NCBI GenBank assembly: GCA_947632155.1
Contig: CANROF010000018.1
Span: 1-42,163, forward strand
DNA length: 42,163 nt
Direction of reading: 5' to 3'
DNA from: an uncultured Oscillospiraceae bacterium
GTDB lineage: Bacteria; Bacillota; Clostridia; Oscillospirales; Oscillospiraceae
Part shown: in pieces, positions 83-31,451 of the stretch
How positions within the stretch are numbered: position 1 is the stretch's first letter
How the letters are laid out: each line of letters begins with the position of its first letter
Notes under the pieces: generated by a model
The model's database searches: none
Told to the model about the DNA's origin: nothing
What the model saw: only the letters and a program-made list of their open reading frames with translations
Position numbers and translations under genes: made by a program

Positions 83-131
83 TTCATGGTTGCGGGGGCA
101 GGACTTGAACCTGCGACCTCCGGGTTATGAG
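83..131 (-). repeat. attL: displaced 3' half of tRNA-fMet
   Basis: This copy matches 31403-31451 at 47 of 49 positions. On the minus strand it covers the anticodon loop, the 3' anticodon stem, the variable loop, the T arm, the 3' acceptor strand, the discriminator A and CCA. Its T stem is fully paired, including C50-G64, as in ordinary bacterial initiator tRNA. The 5' half of a tRNA is absent: similarity stops one base past the anticodon. If the crossover fell in or near the anticodon loop, this is the original chromosomal 3' half, cut off from its 5' half by the element. Confidence 0.75.
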
Positions 132-244
132 GCAGGGGAGAAGCGTTTCTCCAGCACATTCCCGTCTCACAAGTTGCAGTATTCTCACTTTGCGGAGACT
201 TCGGATAACTTATGAGACGAAATTCTCACAAATCTCAGTGCGAT

Positions 245-263
245 TGCATCAGATAAGCATCAG
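245..263 (+). repeat. Left arm-type direct repeat (19 bp)
   Basis: TGCATCAGATAAGCATCAG is identical to 31303-31321 and in the same orientation, 113 bp inside the left attachment core. Tyrosine integrases of the lambda and Tn916 type bind arm sites flanking the core with their N-terminal domain; that this repeat is such a site is inferred. Confidence 0.6.
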
Positions 264-332
264 GCGGTTGAAAATTTTCTGAAATTTTCTTCGGGTTTTG
301 AAATGACACATTACAATGACAGGAGGTGTGAA

Positions 333-614
333 ATGAAAACCACTATTGAAAAAAGTGCGTCGGGGGATGCGTGGCTCACTGCTGAAACGCTCAGGCAAGC
401 CGGCCTCGCATGGACGGACGAGCTGGATGCCCATGTCTCCGGGAGCGCGATCATCGTCACGAAAAAGCAGATGTCTGCCAATGACCTGCGGGAAGCTATG
501 AGCAGTCTCGTCGCTCTTGCCGATGATTTCAGGAAGCGCGCCAACGAAATCTGCGCCGGCTGCGACGGCGAGGACTGCCCGTATTTGGAGGATGAGTCGG
601 ACGAGGGGGGATGA
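333..614 (+). CDS. Small AbrB/MazE-like protein with a C-terminal cysteine cluster
   Basis: A 93-residue protein. I chose the ATG with AGGAGG seven bases upstream over an earlier in-frame ATG at 303 that has no ribosome site. The N-terminal half (GDAWLTAETLRQAGL, then a short loop, then AIIVTKKQ) has the look of an AbrB/MazE swapped-hairpin DNA-binding fold. The C-terminal part has a CAGCDGEDC cysteine cluster that could bind metal. It is the first gene inside the left end of the element and is followed by a hairpin terminator, so it is probably its own transcript. A regulatory role for the mobilization genes is possible but not shown. The fold call comes from pattern similarity only. Confidence 0.6.
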   Translation: MKTTIEKSASGDAWLTAETLRQAGLAWTDELDAHVSGSAIIVTKKQMSANDLREAMSSLVALADDFRKRANEICAGCDGEDCPYLEDESDEGG

Positions 615-842
615 GGACGGAGAGTAAAAGTGATGAACTCACACATACGCCCCCCTGTCGCGGCGCTGTTTGCGCCGCGTGCGGTCTTCGGCCTCCCCGT
701 GGGGCGTGTACACCTCCGGGACAGGGGAGGCGCGTGGCGCCGCTGTCGGGCGGGGGCAGGACGCCGTTTTCACGCTTTTGGCCCCGTTCGATTTTTGTAC
801 GAGATAAAGGGAGGTGGTCGCAAGCGACCCCTCCCGGCCACA

Positions 843-867
843 AAGCCCCGCGGTGCGGGGCTTTTTT
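843..867 (+). terminator. Rho-independent terminator
   Basis: AAGCCCCGC and GCGGGGCTT form a 9-bp perfect stem with a GGT loop, followed by a run of T. It points in the plus direction and would end transcription coming from the small gene at the left end, separating it from mobC and the relaxase. Confidence 0.8.
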
Positions 868-934
868 GAGCTTCGCCGGGGTGGTCGGTAAAAACGGCTG
901 CCCCGGTTTTAGGTACACCTTGGGGCCGAAAACG

Positions 935-967
935 CCCGTGACACAAGGGCTTTGACGGTGTCACGGG
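935..967. promoter_or_regulatory. Perfect 10-bp inverted repeat before mobC (oriT hairpin or operator)
   Basis: CCCGTGACAC and GTGTCACGGG flank a 13-nt spacer, ending 16 bases before the mobC start codon. Relaxase origins usually carry an inverted repeat beside the nic site, and ribbon-helix-helix MobC proteins bind such repeats. It could equally be an autoregulatory operator. There is no T tract after it, so a terminator is less likely. Confidence 0.5.
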
Positions 968-983
968 CAGAAGGAGGACAAGA

Positions 984-29267: not shown

Positions 29268-29722
29268 AGCAAATAAATTTCGACCTTTTGCCTTTACATT
29301 CAAAAATTTTTGGGGCAACAAGGAAGTGTGAGGGTAATTGAAAAGCCTCACCATTGTTCTTTGACAATTTCATATCCGGCAACTGGATAACTTTAGCGGA
29401 CGGTCCCTTGACGGGGACAGCGGCGGGCGGATGCGCCAAGACCTTCCTGTACAGTTCACTGTATAAAATGACGGCCTTTAAGGAAGCGAGCGTGTACCCA
29501 TCCGAACCGCACCGGCTTTGGCAAGCCGCGCCATGACCCCGTCCGCCTACAATGATACCCCTGCCCAGCCACAGACGCAAGCAATGGGGGCAGCTCGGAG
29601 AGATCCTCGGAGGGGTGAGATTCCCGGTGCGTGTCGCCAGACGCGGTCCAGTTGTACGCCCTTGGCCTCGGGAAGTAGTGTCGAATGGAGGCTGTAAGAC
29701 GTAAGTATCAAAAAACAAACCA

Positions 29723-29753
29723 AGGGGCCACTCTGCCTCCCAGTGTGGTCCCT
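29723..29753 (+). promoter_or_regulatory. Hairpin in the excisionase leader
   Basis: AGGG, G/T, CCAC pairs with GTGG and CCCT across a 13-nt loop, about 40 bases before the excisionase start codon. No T tract follows, so a role in translation or protein binding is more likely than termination. Confidence 0.4.
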
Positions 29754-29793
29754 GTATAAAATAAACACATTCTGATTTACAGGAGGGATGATA

Positions 29794-30003
29794 ATGAAAA
29801 AACAAATTTACCACAGCATAGATGACCTTCCTGATTTCTGCACAGTCTCGGACTTCTCTGTCCTCTTCGGTGTCTCACGGGCCACGGCGTACCGCATGGC
29901 GGCCCAAGGCAACATCCCCTGCATACACATCGGCAGGCGCGTAGTGATGTCCAGAGAACATATCCGGCGCTGGGCGGATCAGGCGGCGGGGATGGGGGCG
30001 TGA
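29794..30003 (+). CDS. xis: Excisionase-family DNA-binding protein
   Basis: A 69-residue protein. I chose the second ATG, seven bases after AGGAGG, because the first one touches the ribosome site. It has a MerR/excisionase-type winged helix: TVSDFSVLFGVSRATAYRMAAQGNIPCIHIGRRVVMSREHIRRWAD. It lies directly before the integrase gene and shares TGATG with it, so the two are coupled. Known role in such elements: bending att DNA and steering the integrase towards excision. It could also activate other element genes. Confidence 0.85.
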   Translation: MKKQIYHSIDDLPDFCTVSDFSVLFGVSRATAYRMAAQGNIPCIHIGRRVVMSREHIRRWADQAAGMGA

Positions 30004-31262
30004 TGATGGCGAGAAATGAAAAGAGAACCGGTAGTCTCTATCAGGCAAAGGATAAAACGTGGGTCTATCAGTTCAATGAGGACGGCAAACGGAAGACAAA
30101 ACGCTTCAAGAAAAAAGCTGAGGCCCGTCTCTTCATTGAGTCCCTCAACAAAGCCAACGCCACTCTGATCTCAAGGGCCTCTATCGACCCTTCCCCCACA
30201 AGGACAGCCGGAGTCATTACCGTCGGCGATTGGTTCGACCGCTGGCTTGAGACATACGCAAAACCCTCCGTCAAGCTCTCTACCTACTGTAGCTACGAGC
30301 TGTACATCCGCGCACATATCAAGCCCATGATCGGCGAGAAGTACATGAACACCATCACCGCTGATGAGCTGCAAGAGTTCTTCAACGACCGCGGCGCTAA
30401 CGGCAACCTCCAGCGGCAGGGCGGCCTGTCGCCCAAGACGTTGACCAACATCCGCAACATGATGCACATCGCCTTCGACCAGGCGTTGAAGAACGGCATG
30501 ATCACTGTCAACTTCGTTGAGAGTGTCCGTCTCCCCAAAGCTGAGAAAAAGGAGATGCGCGTCTTGGACCGGGAGGAACAATCTCGTCTCATCGCCGCCG
30601 CGCGCCTCGCCCCGGAACCCGCCGCATTCGGTATCATCTTCGACCTGTTCACGGGACTGCGCATCGGCGAGCTGTGCGGACTGCGGTGGAAGAACGTCAA
30701 CATGGACGACCACTCAATCAGAGTATGCGAGACACGCAACCGCCTCCCGAACTTCGATGACTCCATCGAAACAGCCACAAGCGTCAAAACAGTTGAAAGC
30801 ACAAAGACCTCCAGCTCCCGCAGGACGGTCTACATGACCGACAGTCTCTATAAAGACTTCCAGCAGTACATGAACATCCAACTCTCGATAAAAAAGCAGT
30901 ACCCGTCCTACAACCCGGACGGGTACGTGTTCTGTCAGGAGAACGGCGACCCCTACGAGCCGCGGACCTACGAGGATCTGTTCAAGCGATGCGTGAGACA
31001 AGCGGGGATACGTGACGCCAACTTCCACGCCCTCCGACATACCTTCGCTACCCGGAGTCTGGAGCAGGGCATGGACGTGGTGACTCTCTCCAAGCTTCTG
31101 GGCCACGCCAATCCCTCCGTCACCATGGACAAGTACGGCCATGCCATCGACGACCACAAGCGCCAGAGCGTCCAGCGCCTCGACGACCTCTACGCCGCCC
31201 CGCCCCAGCCGCCGAGTTCCCAACCAACCCAGAAGGACCCGTGGTTGACCATGGAGTGGTGA
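30003..31262 (+). CDS. int: Tyrosine integrase of the element
   Basis: A 419-residue tyrosine recombinase. Residues about 8-60 are a basic arm-binding domain (GSLYQAKDKTWVYQFNEDGKRKTKRF), about 75-180 the SAM-like core-binding domain, and about 190-390 the catalytic domain. Catalytic residues: R220 (FTGLRIGE), H342 and R345 (HALRHTFATR), H368 (LLGHANPS) and the nucleophile Y378 (MDKYGHA). The start overlaps the excisionase stop codon; GTG at 30000 and ATG at 30006 are other choices. The gene ends 144 bases before the tRNA-fMet and points at its 3' end, the usual position for an integrase using that tRNA as target. Confidence 0.95.
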   Translation: MMARNEKRTGSLYQAKDKTWVYQFNEDGKRKTKRFKKKAEARLFIESLNKANATLISRASIDPSPTRTAGVITVGDWFDRWLETYAKPSVKLSTYCSYELYIRAHIKPMIGEKYMNTITADELQEFFNDRGANGNLQRQGGLSPKTLTNIRNMMHIAFDQALKNGMITVNFVESVRLPKAEKKEMRVLDREEQSRLIAAARLAPEPAAFGIIFDLFTGLRIGELCGLRWKNVNMDDHSIRVCETRNRLPNFDDSIETATSVKTVESTKTSSSRRTVYMTDSLYKDFQQYMNIQLSIKKQYPSYNPDGYVFCQENGDPYEPRTYEDLFKRCVRQAGIRDANFHALRHTFATRSLEQGMDVVTLSKLLGHANPSVTMDKYGHAIDDHKRQSVQRLDDLYAAPPQPPSSQPTQKDPWLTMEW

Positions 31263-31302
31263 AGGCAACTGCATCACGGTTCCAAATAAAAATCCAAAAA
31301 AC

Positions 31303-31321
31303 TGCATCAGATAAGCATCAG
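31303..31321 (+). repeat. Right arm-type direct repeat (19 bp)
   Basis: Identical to 245-263 and in the same orientation, 81 bp inside the right attachment core. A shorter match (TGCATCA) lies at 31270 just past the integrase stop. In the circular form the two 19-bp copies would flank the core, as arm sites do. Confidence 0.6.
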
Positions 31322-31371
31322 ACGCGAGTTTGGTACATCATTCCAGCCAGAAAGCCTCGAAAAAGTTATAA

Positions 31372-31404
31372 AAAGTGCCGGATTTCATTGAAATCCGGCA
31401 CTTT
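31372..31404 (-). terminator. Terminator of tRNA-fMet supplied by the element
   Basis: A perfect 15-bp stem with a 3-nt loop (AAAGTGCCGG at one end, CCGGCACTTT at the other). On the minus strand it starts within a few bases of the tRNA CCA end and is followed by TTTTTATAAC. It also lies past the integrase gene and could serve both strands. Confidence 0.8.
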
Positions 31405-31451
31405 CATGGTTGCGGGGGAAGGACTTGAACCTACGACCTCCGGGTTATGAG
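31403..31451 (-). repeat. attR: 3' half of tRNA-fMet rebuilt by the element
   Basis: Matches 83-131 at 47 of 49 positions. The two differences fall on the partners of a single T-stem pair: C50-G64 in the left copy, U50 and U64 here. If the crossover fell in or near the anticodon loop, this half came from the element. Confidence 0.75.

What the first reader, a model, noticed from the sequence alone, without database searches (positions are those of the whole stretch)
83..31451. A mobilizable element that appears to carry a whole uronate/glycoside utilization locus into the initiator tRNA gene
The two ends share the 3' half of tRNA-fMet and a 19-bp arm-type repeat. The mob module lies at one end and xis/int at the other, with a complete importer, regulator, six stand-alone glycosidases and five sugar-acid or sugar-phosphate enzymes between them. 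IME cargo is usually resistance, restriction or short accessory genes; a 24-kb catabolic locus would mean glycan diets move between gut bacteria by relaxase-driven transfer without the element's own conjugation pore.
Basis: partly seen in the sequence, partly recalled or inferred. Interest (0 to 1): 0.82.

Follow-up and report, generated by a model that had tools for sequence, protein, structure and literature searches.

The report
Mobile element carrying sugar-eating genes
A stretch of DNA in a gut bacterium, probably from a rabbit, looks like a hitchhiking mobile element that sits in a tRNA gene and carries a large set of genes for importing and digesting plant-type sugars, and sister elements in related bacteria carry other gene sets, several of them for sugars, in the same slot.

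Summary
Window 83-31451 is bounded by two copies of the 3' half of tRNA-fMet (47 of 49 bases alike) and an exact 19-bp repeat; neither arises in 100 shuffles. A MOBL relaxase module lies at one end, xis-int at the other, 24 kb of sugar genes between. Best reading: an integrative and mobilizable element (IME). Twelve of 34 genomes of the genus hold a long copy of this integrase (93-100% identical). Sister elements share ends, relaxase and integrase but carry other cargo from one fixed left boundary. Of 10 copies looked at, 4 carry glycan genes, 3 a redox cluster, 1 restriction genes, 1 ABC/AAA proteins, 1 unidentified. In relatives the sugar locus lies in ordinary chromosome, so the IME probably picked it up. 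Corrections: bases 1-82 are an IS end, not host flank; the uronate pathway is not complete on the element (UxaC lies elsewhere); the host has no PF02534 coupling protein. Transfer is inferred, and no recent transfer is shown. New clue: the relaxase shares its C-terminal tail with unrelated MOBP relaxases. A new variant of a known kind.

The parts
1..82 (.). end of a multi-copy insertion sequence abutting the left att copy; also the contig start
   Evidence: 12 further places in other own contigs at 88-99%, e.g. C26 and C7 at contig starts, C64, C77; DDE_Tnp_1_6 and DUF772 transposase fragments beside copies in C77 and C64
83..131 (.). left att copy: 3' half of tRNA-fMet, then the element's left end
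   Evidence: 47/49 to 31403-31451; same element left end in L072, L079, L084, L085, L099, L100
245..263 (+). 19-bp direct repeat near left end (probable integrase arm site, inferred)
   Evidence: exact copy at 31303; 0 in 100 shuffles; near-copies in each of the 13 sibling loci searched
333..614 (+). small backbone ORF, 93 aa
   Evidence: ORF; no Pfam match; homologous segments in siblings
984..1430 (+). 148-aa protein directly before the relaxase; probable ribbon-helix-helix relaxosome accessory (inferred)
   Evidence: no Pfam match; 89-92% aa in 5 siblings; pLS20 has two RHH auxiliary proteins (title seen in listing)
1418..3400 (+). MOBL relaxase with Sel1 repeats and a C-terminal tail shared with MOBP relaxases
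   Evidence: PF18555 E 1.8e-32; Tyr26 and KHIHVH read; tail
3465..3746 (-). HTH antitoxin-like protein
   Evidence: HTH_3
3739..4101 (-). Gp49 family toxin-like protein
   Evidence: PF05973 E 4.9e-26
4192..4314 (.). conserved noncoding segment forming the left edge of the cargo slot
   Evidence: 10 sibling segments; 9 of 10 alignments stop at 4304-4315
4340..4975 (-). RpiB/LacAB-like isomerase with DUF3666
4983..5792 (-). F5/8 type C-like domain protein (below Pfam cut-off)
5789..6625 (-). SDR oxidoreductase
6600..7781 (-). GH88 glycosidase
7797..8666 (-). SDR oxidoreductase (possible fructuronate reductase, inferred)
8659..9705 (-). UxuA D-mannonate dehydratase
   Evidence: PF03786 E 2.5e-131
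9723..11480 (-). GH3 glycosidase
11477..12319 (-). HAD hydrolase
   Evidence: scanned as 11477-12454
12328..14490 (-). GH2 glycosidase
   Evidence: scanned as 12328-14658
14498..15133 (-). HAD hydrolase
15146..16081 (-). IU_nuc_hydro-like hydrolase
16060..17844 (-). GH3 glycosidase
17831..19252 (-). GH43 glycosidase
19268..20620 (-). GH1 glycosidase
20694..21716 (-). ABC permease (BPD_transp_2)
21757..22926 (-). probable sugar-binding protein (Peripla_BP_4, below cut-off)
22990..24006 (-). ABC permease (BPD_transp_2)
24019..25524 (-). ABC ATPase, two domains
25786..28314 (+). AraC regulator fused to GH39
28757..29354 (.). noncoding right edge of the cargo slot; units repeated in siblings
29549..29630 (+). 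pemK RNA motif upstream of xis-int
   Evidence: RF02913, 54.2 bits
29794..30003 (+). excisionase-like HTH_17 protein
30000..31262 (+). tyrosine integrase
   Evidence: PF00589 E 3.6e-30, PF14659; close relatives
31303..31321 (+). 19-bp direct repeat near right end
31403..31451 (.). right att copy inside tRNA-fMet
31407..31482 (-). complete tRNA-fMet, 3' half supplied by the element (inferred)

Best explanation
Window 83-31451 is an integrative and mobilizable element of a tRNA-fMet-specific MOBL family. Its tyrosine integrase recombines in the tRNA-fMet gene within a 49-bp shared core that reaches the anticodon loop (read from conserved ends). Xis should excise it, MobL with the 148-aa accessory should nick it, and a helper's type IV channel should move it (inferred). 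Between a mobilization module and an integration module lies a cargo slot that starts at about 4315 and ends near 28757. In this genome the slot holds a 24-kb glycoside and uronate catabolic locus: ABC importer, regulator, glycosidases, UxuA and oxidoreductases. The products probably feed the host's resident hexuronate pathway (UxaC elsewhere). The locus was probably captured from a chromosomal locus of this genus. Sister elements carry other glycan genes, a redox cluster or restriction genes in the same slot.
For: att and 19-bp repeats far beyond chance. Same element left end in 6 other loci, and the same terminator-tRNA right end beside the integrase in 7 loci listed (near-identical copies were listed once). 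In 9 of 17 named loci the tRNA follows int by 145-148 bp. Siblings with the same mob and int and other cargo: G031:C11, G017:C46, G021:C8, and G033:C17 with a truncated int. Left cargo edge at 4304-4315 in 9 of 10 sibling segments. Site free of this integrase in core-tree sister G028 (2.9 kb of flank) and in G026:C14 (0.46 kb of flank), which share the same native terminator although far apart in the tree. Tandem junctions int|att|next element in L072, L079, L084, L085, L099. Sugar locus collinear at 73-84% in G015, G025, G029, G031, in ordinary chromosome where the flanks are long enough to tell, G015 and G031. Integrase distances do not track species distances: Spearman 0.14, p 0.22, 77 non-independent pairs. 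Codon use of cargo is nearer the host (correlation 0.991) than that of the backbone (0.948).
Against: No reads, so no circular form or attP was seen. The left host junction is hidden by an IS and the contig start. No oriT was sought or identified. The host has no PF02534 coupling protein. Synonymous differences from this genome, 0.33-0.49 for int and 0.39-0.44 for mobL, are about those of three core genes together, 0.33-0.53, so no recent transfer is shown. Tree tests do not reject three core clades at 0.05 (AU p 0.08, 0.09, 0.13). The close relatives are draft genomes in many contigs, titled MAGs where named. G026 also holds a copy of the integrase on another contig (C33), so it is not free of the family.
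Confidence: 0.86

Rival explanations
1. Two neighbouring elements: the mob module belongs to one IME and the int to another, with a chromosomal sugar locus trapped between, as tandem arrays at this tRNA would allow.
For: Tandem arrays and decayed neighbours exist at this tRNA.
Against: Only two att copies exist in the window, both at the ends (up to 3 mismatches). Siblings have the same mob-cargo-int order with the same left cargo edge.
Confidence: 0.05
2. A fixed genomic island: formerly an IME, now immobile, with the cargo kept by selection.
For: IS at the left end, no PF02534 coupling protein in this genome, and divergence about as old as the species split.
Against: Int, xis, MobL and the toxin-antitoxin-like pair are uninterrupted ORFs and both att copies are present; MobL keeps Tyr26 and the His triad; int pS exceeds core pS in the close pair G017b/G032 (0.35 against 0.21), unlike fixed inheritance.
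Confidence: 0.2
3. Assembly or binning chimera that joins a chromosomal sugar locus to IME ends.
For: Draft genome of 89 contigs; the contig begins in a repeat.
Against: The left cargo joint falls where sibling joints fall. G031's sibling even shares about 170 bp of the first cargo gene, an RpiB-like tail. No second long copy of the locus was listed for this genome, only a uxuA paralogue.
Confidence: 0.04

Closest known systems
Gut IMEs and ICEs with carbohydrate cargo (ImmeDB, PMC6907783; outline and passages seen)
   Same: Integrase plus relaxase without a pore, in gut bacteria; the paper reports 47 SusC/SusD polysaccharide loci on mobile elements and IMEs with tyrosine integrases.
   Different: There glycoside hydrolases for mucus are enriched only in Bacteroidetes elements and IMEs have a median of 11 cargo genes; here it is a Firmicutes-type locus with ABC importer and about 19 cargo genes, on a MOBL IME, a relaxase class not named in the passages seen.
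MOBL relaxases, prototype RelLS20 of plasmid pLS20 (PMC5313138; passages seen)
   Same: PF18555 domain, tyrosine at residue 26, His triad.
   Different: pLS20 is a conjugative plasmid; this element is integrated, no pore gene was found in it, and its relaxase has Sel1 repeats and a tail shared with MOBP relaxases.
ICEs with sugar cargo such as Tn5276 (sucrose and nisin) and CTnscr94 (recalled, not looked up)
   Same: Sugar catabolism on an integrated transferable element.
   Different: Those are recalled as self-transmissible and as carrying one sugar; here no pore gene was found and relatives carry different glycan gene sets.

Membership tests
Integrative and mobilizable element (IME) | own site-specific integrase and direct-repeat ends | tested here: met
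Integrative and mobilizable element (IME) | own relaxase | tested here: met
   PF18555; catalytic residues read
Integrative and mobilizable element (IME) | no mating-pore genes | tested here: met
   40 ORFs scanned against Pfam, none of a pore family; the other mechanical ORFs were not scanned
Integrative and mobilizable element (IME) | oriT | not tested
   no oriT search was made
Integrative and mobilizable element (IME) | excision and mobilization by a helper | not testable with these tools
   needs reads or culture
MOBL relaxase | PF18555 domain above cut-off, catalytic Tyr near residue 26, His triad | tested here: met
   113.3 bits against 28.5; Tyr26 and KHIHVH (features from PMC5313138 passages)
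Integrative and conjugative element (ICE) | encodes its own type IV secretion system | tested here: not met
Bacteroidetes-type polysaccharide utilization locus | SusC/SusD pair | tested here: not met
   no such family among the ORFs scanned; importer is ABC type
Gram-positive glycan utilization locus | importer, regulator and glycosidases together | tested here: met

The most novel reading that the evidence does not exclude
A MOBL IME family of rabbit-gut Oscillospiraceae works as an exchange vehicle for whole glycan-utilization loci: one tRNA-fMet site, one fixed cargo slot, interchangeable catabolic loci, tandem stacking, and a relaxase C-terminal tail shared with unrelated MOBP relaxases that acts as a common pass for the same helper channel.
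Probability: 0.4. Interest if true: 0.78.

Novelty: new variant of a known kind. Interest (0 to 1): 0.6.

Why it matters
In Bacteroidetes, polysaccharide loci are reported on mobile elements. How such loci move among the fibre-eating Firmicutes of herbivore guts is less clear. Here one element family with a defined site, slot and relaxase carries four different glycan gene sets among species of one genus, and the sugar locus of this window has chromosomal relatives. This makes cargo capture and swapping directly testable at named junctions. The tail shared by MOBL and MOBP relaxases gives a concrete, testable idea of how pore-less elements of different kinds could use one helper.

Tried and rejected
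Left host flank: the Mor-like gene beside the free site in G028 was sought in 34 genomes; 6 have a match (2 of them at only 34% identity, one a 22-residue piece at a contig end), this genome has none, so the left junction stays unread. Recent transfer by synonymous distance: not shown. Formal tree conflict: AU tests not significant, although one starred int branch (G017b+G025) conflicts with the core tree. Viral contigs: no stretch matches the integrase patterns. Phages: int matches all under 60% identity. Plasmids: relaxase matches all under 60%, the only record with at least 80% of the query covered being an 8-kb Subdoligranulum plasmid at 34%; the tail alone has no plasmid match at E 0.01. 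Cross-lineage transfer from L079 (genome G239, GyrA 54% to this genome) was not claimed, because the contig is only 7 kb and may be mis-binned. MOBP relaxases with the shared tail were examined as candidate helpers, but their neighbours look by ORF appearance like serine recombinases and AAA proteins, with no pore gene recognised by eye (no Pfam run on those neighbours, and only parts of most contigs fetched), so they may be other IMEs.
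Full report
What is there. The window starts at base 1 of contig C18 of the own genome. A complete initiator tRNA (CAT) lies at 31407-31482 on the minus strand (initiator type read from its sequence). Its 3' half recurs at 83-131 with 47 of 49 bases equal, and an exact 19-bp repeat lies at 245 and 31303; 100 shuffles gave neither. The left end holds a 148-aa protein, a MOBL relaxase with Sel1 repeats and a toxin-antitoxin-like pair. The right end holds an HTH_17 excisionase-like protein and a tyrosine integrase. 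Between them lie 24 kb of sugar genes. The host block to the right is PSP1, a DNA polymerase III delta'-like protein (called holB here), DUF1846, dapB, dapA, RNase H, gyrA and gyrB.

Correction of the left flank. Bases 1-82 match 12 places in other contigs of the genome at 88-99% identity, and two contigs begin with them or nearly so. Beside copies in C77 and C64 lie transposase pieces (DDE_Tnp_1_6, DUF772). So 1-82 is most likely an IS end that abuts the att copy, and the host sequence left of the element is not in the window. The proposed empty-site test with 1-82 as flank would mislead.

The family. A scan of the collection of 84,980 species genomes with short exact patterns of the integrase, which reaches close relatives only, gave 17 loci; all their titles name 'Lapin' isolates (French for rabbit; the host itself is not stated). 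In the genus, 12 of 34 genomes hold a long copy (286-420 aa matched, 93-100% identical) and G033 holds fragments. In 9 of the 17 loci a complete tRNA-Met follows the integrase by 145-148 bp. Six loci besides the window show the same left end after the att core, and five of them (L072, L079, L084, L085, L099) show it directly after another element's integrase or integrase fragment, which is tandem stacking. The site is free of this integrase in G028, sister of this genome in the core tree (100/99 support), over 2.9 kb of left flank, and in G026:C14 over 0.46 kb; both have the same native terminator and a Mor-like gene or its start beside it. G026 does hold the integrase on another contig. Other integrases of about 30% identity lie at the same tRNA in G003, G018 and G023. 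In another genus, G204, a 37% integrase lies beside a tRNA-Met (CAT) next to gyrB and gyrA.

Cargo. I looked at the cargo of 10 element copies. Glycan genes in 4 of 10: this window; G031:C11 (His kinase, AraC response regulator, acetylesterase, permease, GH3, fucose-isomerase-like, FGGY kinase, transketolase, ROK); G017:C46 (MFS_2 transporter, GH1, two GH43, GH2, GH78, AraC); G025:C7 (GH31 and GH78 beside a broken integrase, left end not found). Redox cluster (LysR, aldo-keto reductase, Fe-S protein) in 3 of 10: G021:C8, and G016:C2 and the left neighbour in G031:C11, filed by matching ORF starts only. Restriction genes in 1: the left neighbour in G033:C17. In 1, the right element of G033:C17, an ABC protein in the slot and AAA and DUF3800 proteins left of mob. 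In 1, G017:C6, the cargo is unidentified: only one protein was scanned, an HTH. Copies cut by contig ends or not fetched (among them those in G013, G019, G022, G023, G026, G032, G025:C68 and L079) were not counted. The left edge of the slot is sharp: 10 sibling segments match window 4181-4345, and 9 stop at 4304-4315; G031 runs on to 4510, a remnant of the RpiB-like gene.

Origin of the sugar locus. Window 7797-28318 is collinear at 73-84% with loci in G031:C1, G015:C1, G025:C29 and, in pieces, G029; shorter pieces occur in G030, G024 and G022 whose context I did not resolve. In G031 the locus is on another contig (C1) than the tRNA-PSP1 site (C11), likewise in G025 (C29, site C68) and G029 (C70, C103 and C7, site C108); in G015 the site was not found. 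In G031 and G015 no MobL match lies within the 117.5 kb fetched around each; one distant integrase lies 24 kb away in G031. G015 and G025 share left neighbours by ORF starts. There the locus has an extra large ORF, a GH78 rhamnosidase in G025, and an ORF of about 229 aa, both missing in the window. So the chromosome is the likely source. Window 4340-7790 is not part of those loci; its pieces resemble scattered genes. The own genome has no second long copy listed, only a uxuA paralogue on C67, and UxaC on C9.

Age and transfer. Proportions of synonymous differences from this genome are 0.33-0.49 for int and 0.39-0.44 for mobL, against 0.33-0.53 for PSP1, holB and DUF1846 together. Cargo genes differ by 0.35-0.61 from the four chromosomal relatives. 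So nothing shows a recent jump. Integrase distances do not follow core distances (Spearman 0.14, p 0.22, 77 pairs that are not independent), and the close pair G017b/G032 has int 0.35 against core 0.21. The int tree is weak: one starred branch, G017b with G025, conflicts with the core tree, while tests of three core clades gave AU p 0.08, 0.09 and 0.13. Old, repeated exchange within the genus fits best but is not proven. GC3 is 0.783 in the backbone, 0.843 in the cargo and 0.903 in the host block.

How it would move. No pore gene was found in the element. PF02534 coupling proteins occur in 17 of 34 genomes of the genus but not in this one; other coupling types were not sought. The tail of MobL (residues from 609 or 619 on) is 57-69% identical over 36-53 residues to the ends of seven MOBP-type (PF03432) relaxases from five genomes, E 2e-10 to 6e-9, with nothing significant outside the tail (E 0.09 or worse). 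Eight loci were fetched for this; the eighth gave only a 90-aa ORF with the tail, and the own genome has a 58-aa ORF with it on C17. All eight were picked because they matched the tail, so this is no frequency. I propose, as inference, that the tail is a shared signal for a common helper channel. C-terminal signals on relaxases are established knowledge (recalled; papers listed, not read).

Literature. PMC6907783 (outline and passages) reports carbohydrate cargo on gut mobile elements, with glycoside hydrolases for mucus enriched only in Bacteroidetes elements. PMC5313138 (passages) defines MOBL. PMC4701971 (passages) covers tRNA insertion of ICEs. A search for the phrases 'integrative and mobilizable element' and 'polysaccharide utilization' gave 0 papers; in related searches I saw listings only, for the first 20 of 105 and for the first 15 of 26, and none besides PMC6907783 looked close. 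The library lacks most subscription journals.

Verdict. Observation confirmed; interpretation right in kind, too strong on completeness, on the left flank and on transfer. A new variant of a known kind, of moderate to high interest because the slot and its glycan cargos recur in a family. On re-checking, several numbers were corrected; none changed my odds.

Noticed in passing
window 1418-3400 C-terminus; L168-L174: MOBL relaxase shares its C-terminal tail with unrelated MOBP-type relaxases whose neighbours look by ORF appearance like serine recombinases.
   Followed up: partly
window 28835-29276; siblings in G017, G031, G016: A noncoding unit between cargo and xis has repeated or partly repeated copies in several sibling elements; function unknown.
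   Followed up: no
window 29549-29630: pemK RNA motif (RF02913) upstream of xis-int; the segment matching 29355-29695 is duplicated in G031:C11.
   Followed up: no
window about 305-322: A second variable spot: in G021:C8, G033:C17 and G025:C7 the match to the window jumps here by 2-5 kb of other sequence, e.g. AAA and DUF3800 genes in G033, an IS110-type transposase in G025.
   Followed up: no
window 25786-28314: AraC-type regulator fused to a GH39 domain in one 842-aa ORF, conserved in chromosomal relatives.
   Followed up: no
L106 9546-12942 (G025:C7, 48.5-52 kb): A second MobL element (relaxase about 42% identical, own int) after a run of ribosomal-protein-like ORFs, with a DUF3502 protein and permease-like ORFs near by.
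   Followed up: partly
G204:C16:17480-19616: In another genus a 37% identical integrase lies beside tRNA-Met next to gyrB-gyrA.
   Followed up: partly
L079 (genome G239): A close copy of the integrase in a genome whose GyrA is only 54% identical to this one: distant transfer or a mis-binned 7-kb contig.
   Followed up: partly
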